Assembly: GCA_934402375.1 (NCBI GenBank)
Contig: CAKRUB010000006.1
Span: forward strand, 1-64,000
Length of the DNA stretch: 64,000 bases
Direction: 5' to 3'
DNA from: an uncultured Acetatifactor sp.
GTDB lineage: Bacteria > Bacillota > Clostridia > Lachnospirales > Lachnospiraceae
Each line of letters begins with the position of its first letter. Positions within the stretch are counted from its first letter, which is position 1. The notes under the pieces were generated by a model. It searched no databases and was not told the origin of the DNA. It was given only the letters and a program-made list of their open reading frames with translations. Below are positions 7,154 to 54,311 of this stretch, piece by piece. A program made the position numbers and the translations under genes.

Positions 7154-8311
7154 TTAAGCCTCGGCATCCTCCTCGTCTTCACTGTCGGCGCCGGGGCGGA
7201 CGGTGATGCCATTGACCATGACGCCGCCGTCTAAGCGGATCACAAGGCATTCCTGTCCGTTGATGTTGCGTGTCTCGATGAGATCCGTGCGGTCGGGGCT
7301 TACCTTGATGACAATATCCGGGGTCTTGACCTCGAAGGTTCTTGTGTTCATGACATTGCTGGCGAGCAGCGAGGTCGCTTCGCCGGCGGTCTCGTCGTAA
7401 TGACGGTCAAACTCCTCCAGCTTCTCGTTGGAAACGCCGCTGTCGGCCAGTATAGTCTTTACTTCGTTCTTATCCAGAACAAGCGGTTCCGGCTCTTCTT
7501 TGTGCTCCTCCGCCATTTCCGTAAGGCGGTCGTGGATATTCTTGACAAGCTCGATACCGCAGTCCTCGCCGAGCGTTTCCTCGATCAGCGCCTGAAAGGT
7601 TTCCTTTTGGTCGCCCGCAGAGAGCGGCAGCGGACAGCCGAGAAGCTCTCCGACAAAGCCGGCGTTCAGCTCCTCGGGATCCTTTGAATAATAGAGGGCG
7701 CTGTGAAGGTCGGTGCTGCGATCCGTGAATGCCGGGAAGAGGAAGCCGGTCTCCGGCAGACTTACCACCCAGTCGCGGATACGGTTCTGGAAGGTGTTTT
7801 CCACGGCGTTGTAGGAGAGCCCGGGCTTGGAGAGCTCGACGGGGCAGATACAGGTCAGTATGTACTCGTAAATCTCATCCGAAGCGTCTTCCATGTCGAT
7901 TCCGTCCGAGGTGCGCCCCGGAACGTCGTAGACATCATGTACGATCAGAATGAGGTAGTTGCCGACATATTCATAGTTGGCGATGATCCGGTCATAGTAT
8001 TCCTCGAGCAGGGCATCATCCTTGAGCTTACTGTCGCGCAGCCGCAGCAGAAATTCCTGTGCGCCGCCCTCTTCCTCGCTCTTTAAGGGAAATTCCAGCG
8101 TCAACAGATTTTTCCCGAGCGTGCCGGAGAGATTTTTGCGGAGAATCTCAAAGTATTTGAACATCTCCTCCTCCGGCAGCGCAAGGAATGCCTGTTTCAG
8201 TTCGGTTTTCTTATTCTTCTCACCGTCCACATAGCAGCCGCAGATGCGTGTGATCGAGCAGTTCTTCGGGGTGAGTAGCTTCTTGATTTCAGATATTTCC
8301 TGTTTTGTCAT
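7154..8311 (-). CDS. DUF4317 family protein
   Basis: A 385-residue cytoplasmic protein matching my recollection of DUF4317, a family common in clostridia and of unknown function. No membrane segment, signal peptide or catalytic motif stands out; the C-terminus is acidic (DSEDEEDAEA). The frame stays open upstream, but AAAAGG ends 6 bases before the ATG at 8311, and the upstream codons belong to a repeated leader element (8325-8408), so 8311 is the true start. The leader with three hairpins suggests post-transcriptional control. Function is unknown. Confidence 0.8.
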   Translation of the reverse strand: MTKQEISEIKKLLTPKNCSITRICGCYVDGEKNKKTELKQAFLALPEEEMFKYFEILRKNLSGTLGKNLLTLEFPLKSEEEGGAQEFLLRLRDSKLKDDALLEEYYDRIIANYEYVGNYLILIVHDVYDVPGRTSDGIDMEDASDEIYEYILTCICPVELSKPGLSYNAVENTFQNRIRDWVVSLPETGFLFPAFTDRSTDLHSALYYSKDPEELNAGFVGELLGCPLPLSAGDQKETFQALIEETLGEDCGIELVKNIHDRLTEMAEEHKEEPEPLVLDKNEVKTILADSGVSNEKLEEFDRHYDETAGEATSLLASNVMNTRTFEVKTPDIVIKVSPDRTDLIETRNINGQECLVIRLDGGVMVNGITVRPGADSEDEEDAEA

Positions 8312-8324
8312 TGTATATCCTTTT

Positions 8325-8408
8325 CTGCGCACGTTTTTTGCGCATAGCGAGTTTGTGTCAAGTGCGCGCAGACACAAACTCGTGATTGAAAAATTCAATT
8401 TTTCAATC
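8325..8408 (-). repeat. Three-hairpin leader element, copy A
   Basis: Read on the minus strand, three hairpins stand in tandem: GATTGAAAAATT... (8408-8384, nearly a perfect palindrome), CGAGTTTGTGTC paired with GACACAAACTCG around a TGCGCGCACTT loop (8382-8348), and a TGCGCA/TGCGCA stem (8347-8325). The ribosome site and the DUF4317 start follow at once. The same three parts recur at 34756-34840 and 54177-54261, and the last part at 35001-35040. Similarity to the 34.9-kb copy extends further upstream (about 8430-8466). Confidence 0.85.
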
Positions 8409-8498
8409 TTTTACCTCGTGCTTTAAGTTTATGGTTTCAGTATAGCTCAATTTCGCTGTGCGGGCAAGCGCGGAATGCTGGATGGGAAAAATCAGTGA

Positions 8499-8592: not shown

Positions 8593-9045
8593 ATGAAAAA
8601 CGATAAGAGCAAGGGCTTTATTGCGGAGTTCAAGAAATTTATCATGAGAGGAAACGTGATGGACATGGCGGTCGGTGTAATTGTCGGCGGAGCCTTTACG
8701 ACCATCGTTAATTCTTTAAATCAGGATATTCTCACACCGATTCTGGCAATTTTTGGAGGAACGGATTTCAGTTATCTGACATTGACGCTCGGCTCTGGGG
8801 AGAATGCGCCGGTATTAAATTACGGAAGCTTTATAACGGCAGTCATCAATTTCCTGATTACGGCGCTGGTGATTTTCCTGCTGATCAAGCTGATCAATAA
8901 GATCGGGGACAAGCTCAGCCACAAGGAGAACAAGCCGGCGGCGCCCACGACGAAGAAATGTCCGTTCTGCAAGAGCGAGATAGCGATAGAGGCGACGAGA
9001 TGCCCTCACTGTACTTCGATGCTGGAGGAGACGAAGCAGGGATAA
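8593..9045 (+). CDS. mscL: Large-conductance mechanosensitive channel MscL with zinc-ribbon tail
   Basis: Pentameric membrane channel that opens on hypo-osmotic shock. The N-terminal amphipathic helix and first membrane segment are typical (FKKFIMRGNVMDMAVGVIVG), with the second segment at about residues 75-100 (FLITALVIFLLIKLIN). The family usually ends in a short cytoplasmic helix; here the last ~35 residues instead contain CPFCKSEIAIEATRCPHC, two CxxC pairs that make a zinc ribbon. Such tails occur in some clostridial MscL proteins. GGGGGAGGAACC precedes the start. The gene is alone, with its own promoter; the following 240 bp are filled by a large inverted repeat. Confidence 0.95.
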   Translation: MKNDKSKGFIAEFKKFIMRGNVMDMAVGVIVGGAFTTIVNSLNQDILTPILAIFGGTDFSYLTLTLGSGENAPVLNYGSFITAVINFLITALVIFLLIKLINKIGDKLSHKENKPAAPTTKKCPFCKSEIAIEATRCPHCTSMLEETKQG

Positions 9046-9061
9046 GAGTTTACAGCAGACA

Positions 9062-9268
9062 GGCAATTACGAAACGCACGTTTTTACAAGTGACGTTGCA
9101 CGAAATGCACAGACCACCGCAGGCACGCTTTCGCTACCTTCCGCACGCAACGGACGCATAAGATGCCGCAGTACGGCATCTAAGCGCCGGCGGCTCCAGA
9201 GTGCACTGCTTGTGGTCAGGTGCATCTCGTGCAACTGTTGATTGAAGTTTGTGCGTTTCGCAATTGCC
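9062..9268. repeat. Long imperfect inverted repeat, family member 1
   Basis: Outer arms GGCAATTACGAAACGCAC (9062-9079) and GTGCGTTTCGCAATTGCC (9251-9268) match at 17 of 18 bases; inner arms GTTGCACGAAATGCAC.. and ..GTGCATCTCGTGCAAC continue the pairing, and a GATGCCG/CGGCATC hairpin sits in the centre. The inner ~150 bp recur at 43659-43865, and a 27-bp fragment at 14347-14373. No open frame of note. Confidence 0.8.
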
Positions 9269-9285
9269 AGAGTTAATTCATAGAA

Positions 9286-10359
9286 ATGAGGAAAATAGTG
9301 AGAGCTACAGAGGATAAAAAAGGGAAAAAGTACATGGCTGCTGCGCTGTGCATCGGTCTGCTTGCAGGCATGACCGGCTGCGGGAATGCGGTGACAAAGA
9401 TAGATACGGCGACGGAGCTGATCCGTAATCTGGACTATCAGGGGGCGCTGGAGGAGCTTGATGCGGCGGAGGCAGAGGGCGAAAACATGCGTCTGGTGGA
9501 ACGCTCCAGAGGCATCGCCTATATGGGACTGACAGAGTACGGCGAGGCGGTACAAGCGTTTCTAAGCTCGTTGGAGGGAAGCAACGGCTTTCTGGAGGAA
9601 ATTGACTTTGATCTGAATTATTATCTTGCGGCAGCTTATACGAAGAATGAGCAGTATGCGGAAGCGGAAAGCACCTATGATGCGATACTTGCGCTGCGTC
9701 CGGACGAGAAGGATGCTTACTTTCTGCGGGGAAATGTCCGTATGAGTCTCGGGGATTTTCAGGGGGCGAAGGAGGATTTTGACCGCGTTGTCTCTATGGA
9801 ACCCAGAAATTATGACCGGTTGATCAGCATTTACGAGGTGCTGGCGCATTTCGGCTATAAGGAGGCAGGACAGGAGTATCTTCAGACGGCGCTTGCGTCG
9901 GGCGATAAACAGATGGATAACTATGTCATTGGGCGGATCTACTATTATCTCGGGGAATATCAGAAGGCGTGTATTGCCCTTGAGGAGGCGAGAGAAAAGG
10001 GAGGTGTCCGGAGCTATCTGTATCTGGGACGCTCCTATGAGGCGACCGGTGATTACAACTATGCCGCCAGCGTATATAACAGCTATCTGGCGAAGTACGA
10101 CGGCAATGCGGAGCTGTATAACCAGCTCGGGCTCTGCGAGATGGCAAAGGGTGAATACAAGAAGGCGCTGGACGCATTCCAGACGGGTATAAAGCTCAGC
10201 GAGAGCAGCATGATGCAGTCTCTCTCCTTCAATGAGATCGTGGCTTATGAGTATCTGGAGGAGTATGAACAGGCATTTTTACTGCTTGGAACTTATCTGA
10301 AAAATTATCCTGATGATGAACAGGCACAGAGGGAATACGCTTTTCTGTCGACAAGGTAG
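9286..10359 (+). CDS. TPR-repeat lipoprotein
   Basis: A 357-residue lipoprotein with a basic N-terminus, a hydrophobic core and lipobox MTGC (Cys32), followed by roughly eight tetratricopeptide repeats (examples: YGEAVQAF, YAEAESTYDAILALRPDEKDAY-type units, YKKALDAF). TPR arrays bind proteins, so a scaffold or envelope-assembly role outside the membrane is likely, but no partner is visible. An inner ATG at 9334 has a slightly better upstream AGGG, yet starting there would leave the signal peptide without positive charges, so 9286 is preferred. The next gene is convergent, 3 bases away. Confidence 0.8.
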   Translation: MRKIVRATEDKKGKKYMAAALCIGLLAGMTGCGNAVTKIDTATELIRNLDYQGALEELDAAEAEGENMRLVERSRGIAYMGLTEYGEAVQAFLSSLEGSNGFLEEIDFDLNYYLAAAYTKNEQYAEAESTYDAILALRPDEKDAYFLRGNVRMSLGDFQGAKEDFDRVVSMEPRNYDRLISIYEVLAHFGYKEAGQEYLQTALASGDKQMDNYVIGRIYYYLGEYQKACIALEEAREKGGVRSYLYLGRSYEATGDYNYAASVYNSYLAKYDGNAELYNQLGLCEMAKGEYKKALDAFQTGIKLSESSMMQSLSFNEIVAYEYLEEYEQAFLLLGTYLKNYPDDEQAQREYAFLSTR

Positions 10360-34373: not shown

Positions 34374-34742
34374 TCAGGTCGTGATCCCGAGGTGGCGCTT
34401 GATGGCATCGAAGCTCTCCTTGCTGATGACATGCTCAATCTTGCATGCATCCTCAAGCGCGACGTTCTTGTCGACGCCAAGCTGCATCAGCCAGCTCGAC
34501 AGAAGCTCGTGCCGCTCGTAGATCATCTCGGCGATTGCCCGGCCAGAGGGGGTCAGGGTAATGAAGCCGGATTTGTCCATGATGATATGCTCCTTCTGGC
34601 GAAGGTTTTTCATTGCGACACTGACGCTGGACTTTTTAAAGCCGAGCTCTGCGGCGATGTCCACTGAGCGGACGACAGGGAGCTGTCTGCTCAAGATTAA
34701 TATGGTTTCCAGATAATTTTCCGCTGATTCGTTTACTGCCAT
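34374..34742 (-). CDS. DtxR/MntR-family metal-dependent regulator (short form)
   Basis: A 122-residue regulator. Residues 5-65 are a winged helix (YLETILILS; VVRSVDIAAELGFKKSSVSVAMKNL). The rest is the metal-binding/dimer domain with E-R-H-E-L-L and an ACKIEH..S motif typical of MntR-like proteins. It lacks the SH3-like third domain, as MntR does. Manganese or iron could be the signal; the ligands cannot be sorted by eye. GAGG precedes the ATG at 34742, and the codons upstream belong to the repeated three-hairpin leader. No transporter target is adjacent. Confidence 0.87.
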   Translation of the reverse strand: MAVNESAENYLETILILSRQLPVVRSVDIAAELGFKKSSVSVAMKNLRQKEHIIMDKSGFITLTPSGRAIAEMIYERHELLSSWLMQLGVDKNVALEDACKIEHVISKESFDAIKRHLGITT

Positions 34743-34755
34743 TTTTTCCTCATTT

Positions 34756-34840
34756 CTGCGCACGCTCTTTGCGCATATCGAGTTTGTGTCAAGTGCGCGC
34801 AGACACAAATCTCGTGATTGAAAAATCTTATTTTTCAATC
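34756..34840 (-). repeat. Three-hairpin leader element, copy B
   Basis: Same order as copy A on the minus strand: GATTGAAAAATAAG..TTTTTCAATC (34840-34816), CGAG-TTTGTGTC with GACACAAACTCG (34814-34779) and TGCGCA/TGCGCA (34778-34756), ending 13 bases before the DtxR start. Upstream flanks (about 34891-34930) also resemble copy A. Confidence 0.85.
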
Positions 34841-35000
34841 TTATCCTCGATTCTGTTATAATATGTAAATTATGGGCTGTATGCGTTTACTTTATGGATT
34901 CAGTGTAGCATAATTTTGCTGTGAAAGCAAATTTTATCTGGTAACTTTTGGAGGAAACCTGTATAATTAAGAATACGAGGGTCAAAGGATCCGAAAATTA

Positions 35001-35040
35001 ACAAACTTGCTATGCGCAAAGGACATGCGCAGAAATGGGG
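35001..35040 (+). repeat. Three-hairpin leader element, partial copy D
   Basis: ACAAACTTGCTATGCGCAAA followed by GGACATGCGCAGAAATGGGG reproduces the last part of copies A-C (end of hairpin 2, all of hairpin 3 and the ribosome site), here on the plus strand before the TetR gene. Confidence 0.75.
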
Positions 35041-35046
35041 ATAAAT

Positions 35047-35601
35047 ATGTCACAACTAACAGAGAGGGCGATCGTAGAGGCATTTATTGAACTTTTGAAT
35101 GAGAGACCTCTGGATAAGATCAAGATAAAGGATATTACGGATCGGTGCGGTGTCGCGCGGAATACCTTTTATTATCATTTCGCAGACATTCCGACGCTGC
35201 TGGAGAGCATTTTTACCGCGGAGACGAGGAAGATCATACTCAGCCGGGACGATATGTTTTCGTGGGAGGACAGCTTTATCTTAGCGGCGCAGTTCGCGCT
35301 CGAGAATAAGAAGCTGATTTACCATATCTATAATTCTGTCGAGAGAGAGAACCTTGAGCGCTATCTGAATGACATAGCTGGTGAGGTCATGCGCCAGTAT
35401 GTGGAGCGGGCGGCACAGGGAATGACGGTGTCGGAGGAGGATAAAAAGCTGATCGAGGACTTCTACCGGTCGGCTCTCGTCGGACTGATTTTAGACTGGC
35501 TGGGCAGCGGCATGAAGTATGATCCTCTGCAATATATCAAGCGCGTGGGCTATATGCTGAGGGGAAATATCGAGTTCGTGCTCGAAAAAGTGCAAAAATA
35601 A
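35047..35601 (+). CDS. TetR-family regulator of the MMPL exporter
   Basis: A 184-residue TetR protein. The DNA-binding domain (LTERAIVEAFIELL, then VARNTFYYHFADI) covers residues 5-55; the C-terminal domain is of the TetR_C type found near exporters. An ATG at 35035 is in frame, but GGGGA from the leader element is spaced for the ATG at 35047, as in the other leader copies. It stands 180 bp before the MMPL gene, and a TGTAT/ATACA inverted repeat lies between, so it probably controls that exporter. The inducer is unknown. Confidence 0.85.
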   Translation: MSQLTERAIVEAFIELLNERPLDKIKIKDITDRCGVARNTFYYHFADIPTLLESIFTAETRKIILSRDDMFSWEDSFILAAQFALENKKLIYHIYNSVERENLERYLNDIAGEVMRQYVERAAQGMTVSEEDKKLIEDFYRSALVGLILDWLGSGMKYDPLQYIKRVGYMLRGNIEFVLEKVQK

Positions 35602-43645: not shown

Positions 43646-43658
43646 CAGGGCAGCGGTC

Positions 43659-43865
43659 AGGCGATTGAGAAATTCGTTTTTTTGCCAGTGACGTTGTACA
43701 AGATGCACAGACCACCGCAGGCACGCTTGCGCTACCCTCCGCACGCAGCGGTGCGTAAGTCTCCAAAATATGGAGACTAAGCACCGGCGGCTCCAGAGTG
43801 CGCTGCTTGCGGTCAGGTGAATCTTGTGCAACTGTTTACGGAAGGCTGTAAGTTTCGTATTGCCT
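43659..43865. repeat. Long imperfect inverted repeat, family member 2
   Basis: The inner ~150 bp (from AGTGACGTTG to GTGCAACTG) closely follow the element at 9062-9268, including CAGACCACCGCAGGCACGCT and CGGCGGCTCCAGAGTGC. The central hairpin differs in sequence (GTCTCCA/TGGAGAC) but keeps its pairing, a compensatory pattern. Outer arms (AGGCGATTGAGAAATTCG / AAGTTTCGTATTGCCT) are more diverged. Confidence 0.8.
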
Positions 43866-53669: not shown

Positions 53670-54161
53670 TCAAACAGAACTTGAACAGGGAGAGGAAATA
53701 GTAGAGGGATTTTCCAGAACGAATCGAAAAACTTTAACCTTTCCATCCATTTCGGTGGATTCAATATCAAATCCGCACTTTTCCGTATAAAACTTTACAT
53801 TTTCTTCTTTGTCAACGGGGGTAATTAACGTAAATTTATCCCAGTCATTGCAATGAGACATTATAAATTTCATGGCCTGTGTTCCGATTCCCTTTCCCTG
53901 AAACTCAGGGATTACGCACAGACAGCCAATATCATATACGCCGGGTTCCTCCTCCTTGCAGGAAATACAACCAACAGGTATGCCGTCACAGGTGATAATG
54001 AATTTGGGATAATTGAGTATCGACTGCTCCATCATTTCTTTTGTTTTACCATAGGCAGGACATTGTCCATATTTCATATAATCACTGTAAAAAGAGGCAT
54101 TGTAGATGGCTATTAAGGATTCGGCATCTTCAATTTCTGCGGGTCTATATTTGATTTCCAT
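53670..54161 (-). CDS. GNAT-family N-acetyltransferase
   Basis: A 163-residue acetyl-CoA-dependent transferase. The acceptor side opens with IKYRPAEIEDAESLIAIYN; the acetyl-CoA loop is CVIPEFQGKGIGTQAMKF (R/Q-x-x-G-x-G/A form) and the last strands are VKFYTEKCGF. Substrate unknown. Upstream in-frame codons reach 54197, but GGGAG is spaced for 54161 and the sequence upstream is leader copy C. AT-rich like its neighbours. Confidence 0.87.
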   Translation of the reverse strand: MEIKYRPAEIEDAESLIAIYNASFYSDYMKYGQCPAYGKTKEMMEQSILNYPKFIITCDGIPVGCISCKEEEPGVYDIGCLCVIPEFQGKGIGTQAMKFIMSHCNDWDKFTLITPVDKEENVKFYTEKCGFDIESTEMDGKVKVFRFVLENPSTISSPCSSSV

Positions 54162-54176
54162 AGTTTTCTCCCATTT

Positions 54177-54261
54177 CTGCGCACGTTTTTTGCACATAGC
54201 GAGTTTGTGTCAAGTACGCGCAGACACAAATTTTGAAGTGATTTTTGGATTATATCACTTC
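54177..54261 (-). repeat. Three-hairpin leader element, copy C
   Basis: On the minus strand: GAAGTGAT/ATCACTTC hairpin (54261-54235; same place, different sequence from A and B), then TTTGTGTC with GACACAAACTCG (to 54200) and a TGTGCA/TGCGCA stem (54199-54177), ending 15 bases before the GNAT start. The first hairpin is replaced while pairing is kept. Confidence 0.8.
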
Positions 54262-54311
54262 CTTCCAGCGTTTACAACCATGAAATGGGGTGTAACTGCG
54301 GAAAAGAGTGG

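What the first reader, a model, noticed from the sequence alone, without database searches (positions are those of the whole stretch)
8325..8408. Portable three-hairpin 5' leader shared by unrelated genes
Seen directly: the same ordered set of three hairpins, about 85 nt, stands just upstream of the ribosome site of a DUF4317 gene (8325-8408), a DtxR-type regulator (34756-34840) and an acetyltransferase (54177-54261), always in the direction of the gene; a shorter copy precedes a TetR gene (35001-35040). Hairpin 1 of copy C has a different sequence but keeps its pairing. The element ends in GCAGAAA plus the ribosome site. Inference: a mobile or conserved RNA element that brings its own translation control, such as an RNA switch, protein-binding leader or thermosensor.
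Basis: seen in the sequence. Interest (0 to 1): 0.82.

Follow-up and report, generated by a model that had tools for sequence, protein, structure and literature searches.

The report
Mobile leader inserted at ribosome-binding sites
A 92-base piece of DNA that folds into three hairpins appears to have spread, up to dozens of times per genome, into the ribosome-binding sites of unrelated genes in some gut bacteria, bringing a spare ribosome-binding site so that the gene can still be translated.

Summary
Three ordered hairpins plus an SD-bearing tail (consensus GAAATGAGG) stand just 5' of a DUF4317, a DtxR-like and a GNAT gene; a shorter copy precedes a TetR gene. A covariance model finds the element in 20 of 397 Lachnospiraceae genomes and in no genome of a 391-genome Clostridia sample except the reference G005 (both lower bounds), yet at up to 97 places in one genome. 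Helices covary. Of 71 matches in 60 regions, 62 lie just 5' of an ATG on the same strand; the genes are mostly unrelated, many housekeeping. Orthologous sites give no match in 37 of 40 and 20 of 20 regions. Before hairpin 1 stands an older Shine-Dalgarno (SD) motif in 27 of 54 copies, against 0-5 in earlier windows. Best reading: a mobile element that lands a few bases 3' of an SD and carries a replacement SD, which explains place and direction. A switch or thermosensor is not supported. The mover is unknown; Y1 transposases do not track copy number. In passing: an IS110 element of the same genomes also inserts at SDs, with a CCTCC motif in its presumed bridge-RNA region.

The parts
8317..8408 (-). 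copy A: hairpin 1 (8384-8408), hairpin 2 (8348-8382), hairpin 3 (8326-8344), tail GAAAAGGAT with its SD (8317-8325)
8409..8420 (-). older SD-like sequence CACGAGGTAAAA directly 5' of hairpin 1 of copy A
7154..8311 (-). gene behind copy A, DUF4317 (PF14199), ATG at 8311
34748..34840 (-). copy B: hairpin 1 (34816-34840), hairpin 2 (34779-34814), hairpin 3 (34757-34775), tail GAAATGAGG (34748-34756)
34841..34850 (-). older SD-like sequence TCGAGGATAA directly 5' of hairpin 1 of copy B
34374..34742 (-). gene behind copy B, DtxR-like (Fe_dep_repress, Fe_dep_repr_C), ATG at 34742
54169..54261 (-). copy C: hairpin 1 with different sequence (54235-54261), hairpin 2, hairpin 3 (54178-54196), tail GAAATGGGA
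54262..54266 (-). GGAAG, a weak SD-like sequence directly 5' of copy C
   Evidence: by eye
53670..54161 (-). gene behind copy C, GNAT acetyltransferase, ATG at 54161
35001..35040 (+). copy D: 3' part of hairpin 2, hairpin 3 (35013-35031), tail GAAATGGGG
35047..35601 (+). gene behind copy D, TetR family

Best explanation
It is a non-coding mobile element of about 92 bp (three hairpins, then GAAATGAGG) that inserts between the SD sequence and the start codon, typically 2-7 nt after the native SD, in the direction of the gene, and carries an SD at its own 3' end. The native SD is pushed about 90 nt upstream and translation starts from the carried SD. Shown by sequence: many dispersed copies, fixed position and direction, orthologous sites without the element, an SD-like remnant 5' of the element, tandem copies joined SD-to-hairpin-1, near-identical copies in diverged genomes, base-pair covariation. 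Inferred: that it moves by insertion, that an enzyme acting in trans recognises the SD-spacer sequence together with the hairpins, and that insertion is close to neutral because the new SD is accessible. Not known: the enzyme and the exact 3' boundary (within about 6 nt).
For: Matches per genome 2-97 in 11 genomes at E<=0.1. In 60 regions fetched from three genomes (20 each, chosen among listed matches), 62 of 71 matches have an ATG with an ORF of >=60 aa within -8..+22 nt of the end on the same strand; random positions 1922 of 14200, random non-ORF positions 278 of 6400, opposite strand 3 of 71. GGAG/GAGG in the -9..+4 window before hairpin 1 in 27 of 54 copies with an intact hairpin 1 start, against 0-5 of 54 in eight earlier windows; TA directly before hairpin 1 in 33 of 48 non-tandem copies. 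Orthologous regions without a model match at E<=0.05: 37 of 40 for 11 G005 genes and 20 of 20 for 11 G001 genes. Four G016 copies are 98-99% identical over 98-100 nt to a G005 copy, while 12 compared gene starts are 72-87% identical. Tandem units with the SD as junction in 4 loci. Covariation: 93.9% of cells paired, 23 of 29 pairs with two-sided changes, 0 of 500 shuffles as high. Start region opens more easily with the element in 42 of 58 copies, mean -1.3 kcal/mol. Thirty gene products scanned, 29 with Pfam families of mostly unrelated function.
Against: No mover and no autonomous copy was found: in two genomes searched with the element no widely separated left and right ends were seen among the listed matches, and no left end lies in the 3 kb upstream of six 3'-only copies. 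About half of the copies have no clear GGAG/GAGG close before hairpin 1 (21 of 54 none within 25 nt; 24 of 48 no GGAG within 16 nt), ascribed here to decay of a no longer used SD. No pair of near-identical strains was available, so the exact junction and any target duplication are unresolved; the bases after GAGG vary. holB carries a match in both G005 and G016, and two other relatives' sites carry weak matches, which could mean retention or function. By eye the gene behind one near-identical G016 copy (L278) resembles the gene behind a different-looking G005 copy (L115), so 'different genes' is not proved for all. Covariation controls do not remove relatedness and A4 was fitted to the model.
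Confidence: 0.78

Rival explanations
1. Conserved regulatory leader: a regulon of unrelated genes shares a three-hairpin RNA bound by a protein, sRNA or ligand, and copies are kept because they regulate.
For: Covariation in all three helices; stands in the mRNA leader; both G005 and G016 carry it at holB; a gene that looks like the same aldo/keto reductase follows a copy in two genomes (the second by eye).
Against: Genes scanned share no pathway; orthologous sites mostly without it; only 20 of 397 family genomes at E<=1e-6 (lower bound); SD behind the hairpins, more open with the element in 42 of 58; hairpin 2 loop / hairpin 3 pairing not clearly above shuffles (cells paired 111 of 500 as high, covariation score 34 of 500).
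Confidence: 0.11
2. A MITE or REP of the IS200/IS605 (Y1, HUH) kind, moved by a TnpA or RAYT through single-stranded hairpins, with the SD-spacer as cleavage site.
For: No terminal inverted repeats, hairpins near both ends, fixed direction, left flank resembling the right end.
Against: Y1_Tnp does not follow copy number in 28 genomes (rho -0.22, p 0.26); G012 (51 matches), G034 (34) and G016 (30) have none, all four zero-match genomes have it. GTA before hairpin 1 in 5 of 48. One of six Y1 loci searched has a match nearby, in front of another gene by eye.
Confidence: 0.1
3. Moved in trans by an IS110-type, RNA-guided recombinase whose bridge RNA is directed at the SD.
For: An IS110 element of the same genus inserts at SDs; Transposase_20 count follows leader copy number, rho 0.51, p 0.006 uncorrected, best of three families tried, genome size rho 0.34.
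Against: By eye the leader shares no ends with that IS and no constant CT core fits both leader junctions; G034 (34 matches) and G020 (19) have no Transposase_20 match.
Confidence: 0.12
4. A DNA-level operator (TGCGCA-N7-TGCGCA) for a repressor.
For: Palindromic half sites, highly conserved.
Against: Placed next to the SD; hairpin pairing kept through base changes; unrelated genes.
Confidence: 0.03

Closest known systems
BOX, RUP and SPRITE repeats of pneumococcus (PMC3049150; found passages read)
   Same: Short, dispersed, RNA-folding repeats (BOX modular), suggested to be parasitic.
   Different: Those are over-represented between convergent genes; this one stands directly 5' of start codons, at the SD, in gene direction, with its own SD.
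GTAG and CGTC REPs with RAYT transposases (PMC3733652; found passages, and listing)
   Same: Palindromic, multi-copy, with alternative complementary stems.
   Different: REPs are 20-40 bp with a terminal tag; GTA precedes hairpin 1 in only 5 of 48 copies here and Y1 transposases do not follow copy number.
TD-2 RNA (Rfam RF03162)
   Same: Sub-threshold match over the three hairpins of copy A (29.3 bits).
   Different: Below the gathering score of 48.7, on the opposite strand, and not listed for B or C.
Rickettsia palindromic elements (recalled, no call)
   Same: Insertions that leave gene function intact.
   Different: Those lie in frame inside proteins; this one lies in the ribosome-binding site.

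Membership tests
Small interspersed repeat / miniature non-autonomous mobile element | many short non-coding copies per genome, present or absent at orthologous sites | tested here: met
MITE (DDE type) | terminal inverted repeats | tested here: not met
   by eye, ends GTGTGAAAA and GAAATGAGG are not inverted repeats
MITE (DDE type) | target-site duplication | tested here: inconclusive
   SD-like sequence on both sides, but the 5' one varies while the 3' one is nearly constant in recent copies; no strain pair
REP / RAYT | GTAG tag at the foot of the palindrome | tested here: not met
   GTA before hairpin 1 in 5 of 48 non-tandem copies
REP / RAYT or IS200/IS605 derivative | Y1 transposase in the carrying genomes | tested here: not met
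   no match in G012, G016 and G034; rho -0.22 over 28 genomes; genomes may be incomplete
Riboswitch or cis-regulatory leader | covarying RNA structure | tested here: met
Riboswitch or cis-regulatory leader | consistent gene or pathway association | tested here: not met
   30 of 60 listed genes and 4 window genes scanned
Riboswitch or cis-regulatory leader | conditional hiding of the SD | tested here: inconclusive
   SD unpaired in the predicted folds of A and B, partly paired in the minimum-energy folds of C and D; opening energy lower with the element in 42 of 58; loop pairing not clearly above shuffles; no experiment
Any Rfam 15 family | match at or above the gathering score | tested here: not met
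   window: none; 18 loci with copies: only a tRNA, a TPP and a purine riboswitch
IS110-mobilised element | shared ends and constant core dinucleotide at both junctions | tested here: not met
   by eye against one IS110 subfamily only

The most novel reading that the evidence does not exclude
A class of ribosome-binding-site-homing mobile DNA exists in Lachnospiraceae: elements that recognise the SD as landing site and are self-healing because they carry a replacement SD, moved by an RNA-guided recombinase whose guide is an anti-SD sequence. The three-hairpin leader would be the non-autonomous form and the SD-targeting IS110 the autonomous relative in strategy.
Probability: 0.15. Interest if true: 0.92.

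Novelty: new variant of a known kind. Interest (0 to 1): 0.76.

Why it matters
If true, translation start regions are a safe harbour for mobile DNA: the SD is a sequence shared by many genes, so an element that lands there and supplies a new SD can spread into front positions of core genes at little cost. It would explain dozens of leader insertions per genome, would reset the 5' leaders of core genes, and would mislead searches for regulons and riboswitches in gut bacteria.

Tried and rejected
Rfam at gathering and by E-value: nothing but the weak antisense TD-2 match for A and lower-scoring ones, treated as chance because TD-2 is not listed for B and C. Target-site duplication: not shown, since in the recent G005/G016 copies the 3' SD is nearly constant and the 5' one varies. 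Hairpin 2 loop / hairpin 3 pseudoknot as a switch: complementary in 90% of cells, but paired cells and pair changes are reached by many shuffles (111 and 158 of 500), the covariation score by 34 of 500. Autonomous copy with separated ends: none seen. Y1, reverse transcriptase and IS110 families against copy number: only IS110 correlates, uncorrected. Viral collection: the one match looks like chance in coding sequence by eye. Plasmid records: no match. The 18 'phage' records are human faecal contigs; the eight opened are marked UNVERIFIED and are probably bacterial (inference). Base before GGAG: T in 18 of 24 copies against 2 of 20 control ORF starts, but the control used the first ATG of long ORFs, so it is not used as proof. 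Literature searches listed no paper whose title or shown abstract names this element or an SD-directed mobile element; they cover only the open-licence library.

Full report
What is in the window. Copies A (8317-8408, minus), B (34748-34840, minus) and C (54169-54261, minus) each show hairpin 1, hairpin 2, hairpin 3 and a purine-rich tail with an SD, followed by the ATG of a DUF4317, a DtxR-like and a GNAT gene; D (35001-35040, plus) has hairpin 3 and tail in front of a TetR gene. RNA folding of A, B and C is far better than shuffles (z -5.5, -4.6, -3.9; D -0.5). TGCGCA-N3-10-TGCGCA occurs 3 times against 0.04 expected. No Rfam family reaches its threshold in the window.

Relatives. An exact core pattern found 46 stretches in a collection of 84,980 species genomes; 33 of 46 record titles name Lachnospiraceae, Lachnospira, Roseburia or Lachnoclostridium. 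Five of the rest look like chance matches by eye (L013, L014, L021, L027, L034). A covariance model R1 was built from 13 full copies. At E<=0.1 it matches 97 places in G001, 49 in G008, 48 in G005, 28 in G003 and 2-19 in seven others, 293 in 11 genomes, all of which were chosen because they held a copy. In the genus of G005, 24 of 28 genomes have a match at E<=1e-3. In an even sample of the family, 20 of 397 genomes at E<=1e-6, G005 itself included; in an even sample of the class, 1 of 391, and that one is G005 itself. The last two scored only about ten candidates per genome with stricter filters, so they are lower bounds.

Position. Sixty regions (20 each from G001, G005, G008, chosen among listed matches) hold 71 matches outside the window at E<=0.01. 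In 62 of 71 an ATG with an ORF of at least 60 aa starts within -8..+22 nt of the end on the same strand; random positions score 1922 of 14200, random non-ORF positions 278 of 6400, and the opposite strand 3 of 71. The nine exceptions: two antisense matches of copies already counted (L117, L122), two upstream units of tandem arrays (L078, L134), one whose ATG lies 25 nt on because the match ended early (L125), and four with only short ORFs (L081, L109, L127 and L136, the last a match whose hairpins have other sequences).

Genes. Of 60 downstream genes with coordinates, 30 were scanned: 29 have Pfam families, among them phosphoglycerate kinase, GroES, TrmD, lumazine synthase, threonine synthase, a DNA polymerase III subunit, RF3, GcpE, RimM, an EF-G-like GTPase, an ammonium transporter, SpoVAD and an IstB/DnaA-like ATPase. 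TrkA domains, the elongation-factor GTPase domain and alpha/beta hydrolases occur twice each. That many are core genes is recalled knowledge.

Old SD in front of hairpin 1. Among 54 matches with an intact hairpin 1 start (three of them in the window, tandem units included), GGAG or GAGG falls in the -9..+4 window in 27, against 0-5 in eight earlier 13-nt windows; the last such motif ends 2-7 nt before hairpin 1 in 31 of 54, and 21 of 54 have none within 25 nt. Leaving out tandem units and the window and adding six G016 copies, TA precedes hairpin 1 in 33 of 48 and GGAG is found in 24 of 48. In tandem arrays (L078, L126, L128, L134) the tail of one unit is the sequence before the next hairpin 1. 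In the window A reads CACGAGGTAAAA, B TCGAGGATAA and C GGAAG at this place.

Sites without the element. For 11 G005 genes, 40 orthologous upstream regions from relatives were fetched; R1 finds a match at E<=0.05 in 3 (L177, L178, L180; the L178 one, E 0.035, is weak). One region (L168) is mostly N, one is short (L189), and remnants too weak for the model are possible in L167, L183 and L189 by eye. Example groES: G034 AAAGGAGGCTGTTCATATG; G005 ACGGAGGCTG, then the element, then GAAATGGAGATTATTATG. For 11 G001 genes, 20 regions from relatives (11 from the closest, G046) give no match; two of these starts aligned poorly (L293, L294) and by eye L288 may be a remnant. Sites of A and B were compared by eye: several clear orthologs (L222, L228, L240, L246) show no element, while many of the fetched loci did not align at the start.

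Recent activity. Four G016 copies are 98-99% identical over 98-100 nt to a G005 copy, while the 12 compared G005/G016 gene starts are 72-87% identical. By eye the gene behind one of the four (L278) resembles the gene behind a different-looking G005 copy (L115). GAAATGAGG is constant in most of the recent copies and the bases after it vary, so the SD seems to belong to the element, with the boundary close behind it.

Structure. On the 75-match alignment 93.9% of cells pair, 23 of 29 pairs have two-sided changes, and no measure is reached in 500 shuffles; slides by 1-3 columns fall to 28-68%. The alignment was fitted to the model and sequences are related, so this is support, not proof; hairpin 1 alternates GTGTG/CACAC with GATTG/CAATC. 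The complementarity of hairpin 2 loop and hairpin 3 is kept in 90% of cells but not clearly above shuffles (paired cells 111 of 500, covariation score 34 of 500).

How it most likely works. Insertion between SD and start codon leaves the gene with a new SD about 5-8 nt from its ATG. The computed cost of opening -12..+6 is lower with the element in 42 of 58 copies (mean -1.3 kcal/mol against joined flanks). So a nearly neutral insertion, perhaps a mild insulator of the start region, is the simplest reading. That an enzyme sees the SD-spacer plus the hairpins is inference.

The mover. Y1_Tnp (rho -0.22) and RVT_1 (0.00) do not follow copy number over 28 genomes; Transposase_20 of IS110 does (0.51, p 0.006, uncorrected, three families tried; genome size 0.34). 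Looking at the IS110 copies gave the side result listed under noticed in passing; its ends do not match the leader by eye, so it is at most a precedent.

Literature. PMC3049150, PMC3733652, PMC11208160, PMC11187229 and PMC2864571 were read only as found passages; other papers only as search listings. Rickettsia palindromic elements are recalled.

Noticed in passing
L306, L307, L308 (G012), L311 (G005), L317-L323, L324: An IS110-family element (438-aa transposase, about 1.8 kb): of 12 left junctions looked at, 10 abut AGGAGG (the others read AGGTAGG and AGGTGG), and in 11 of 12 a start codon with an ORF of >=50 aa follows within 34 nt, the transposase pointing away from the gene. Copy L316 (apparently the same place as L306) and L314, L315 (this end missing) were left out. 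About 170 nt upstream of the transposase start the non-coding region holds CCTCCTTGG in 9 of 12; in 7 of these 9 the 2-4 letters before CCTCC equal those of the target. This looks like a bridge RNA set to the SD; no paper saying so appeared in the one search made or in passages of two IS110 papers.
   Followed up: partly
window 9053-9260 (+) and 43651-43857 (+): A second repeated non-coding leader of about 205 nt, 78-82% identical, just 5' of a TPR-protein gene and of a FUR-family gene, with a hairpin that by eye changes sequence but keeps pairing; no Rfam match up to E=1 for 9000-9300, no match in the phage collection.
   Followed up: partly
window 8428-8446 (-) and 34891-34909 (-): Copies A and B share a promoter-like block GCTAYACTGAAWCCATAAA upstream of the leader; 2 matches against 0.03 expected for a pattern drawn from these two.
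   Followed up: no
L110, L116, L115, L272, L274 (G005); L117, L121, L122 (G008): By eye some leader copies hold an extra palindrome between hairpins 1 and 2 or in hairpin 3, suggesting modular growth.
   Followed up: no
L078, L099, L106 and many others: In many copies the ATG inside AAATGAGG is in frame with the gene's ATG (M-R-I-I-M...), so an N-terminal extension is conceivable.
   Followed up: no
L136 1551-1626 (+), G008: A match (45 bits) with three hairpins of wholly different stem sequences, perhaps a distant relative of the leader.
   Followed up: no
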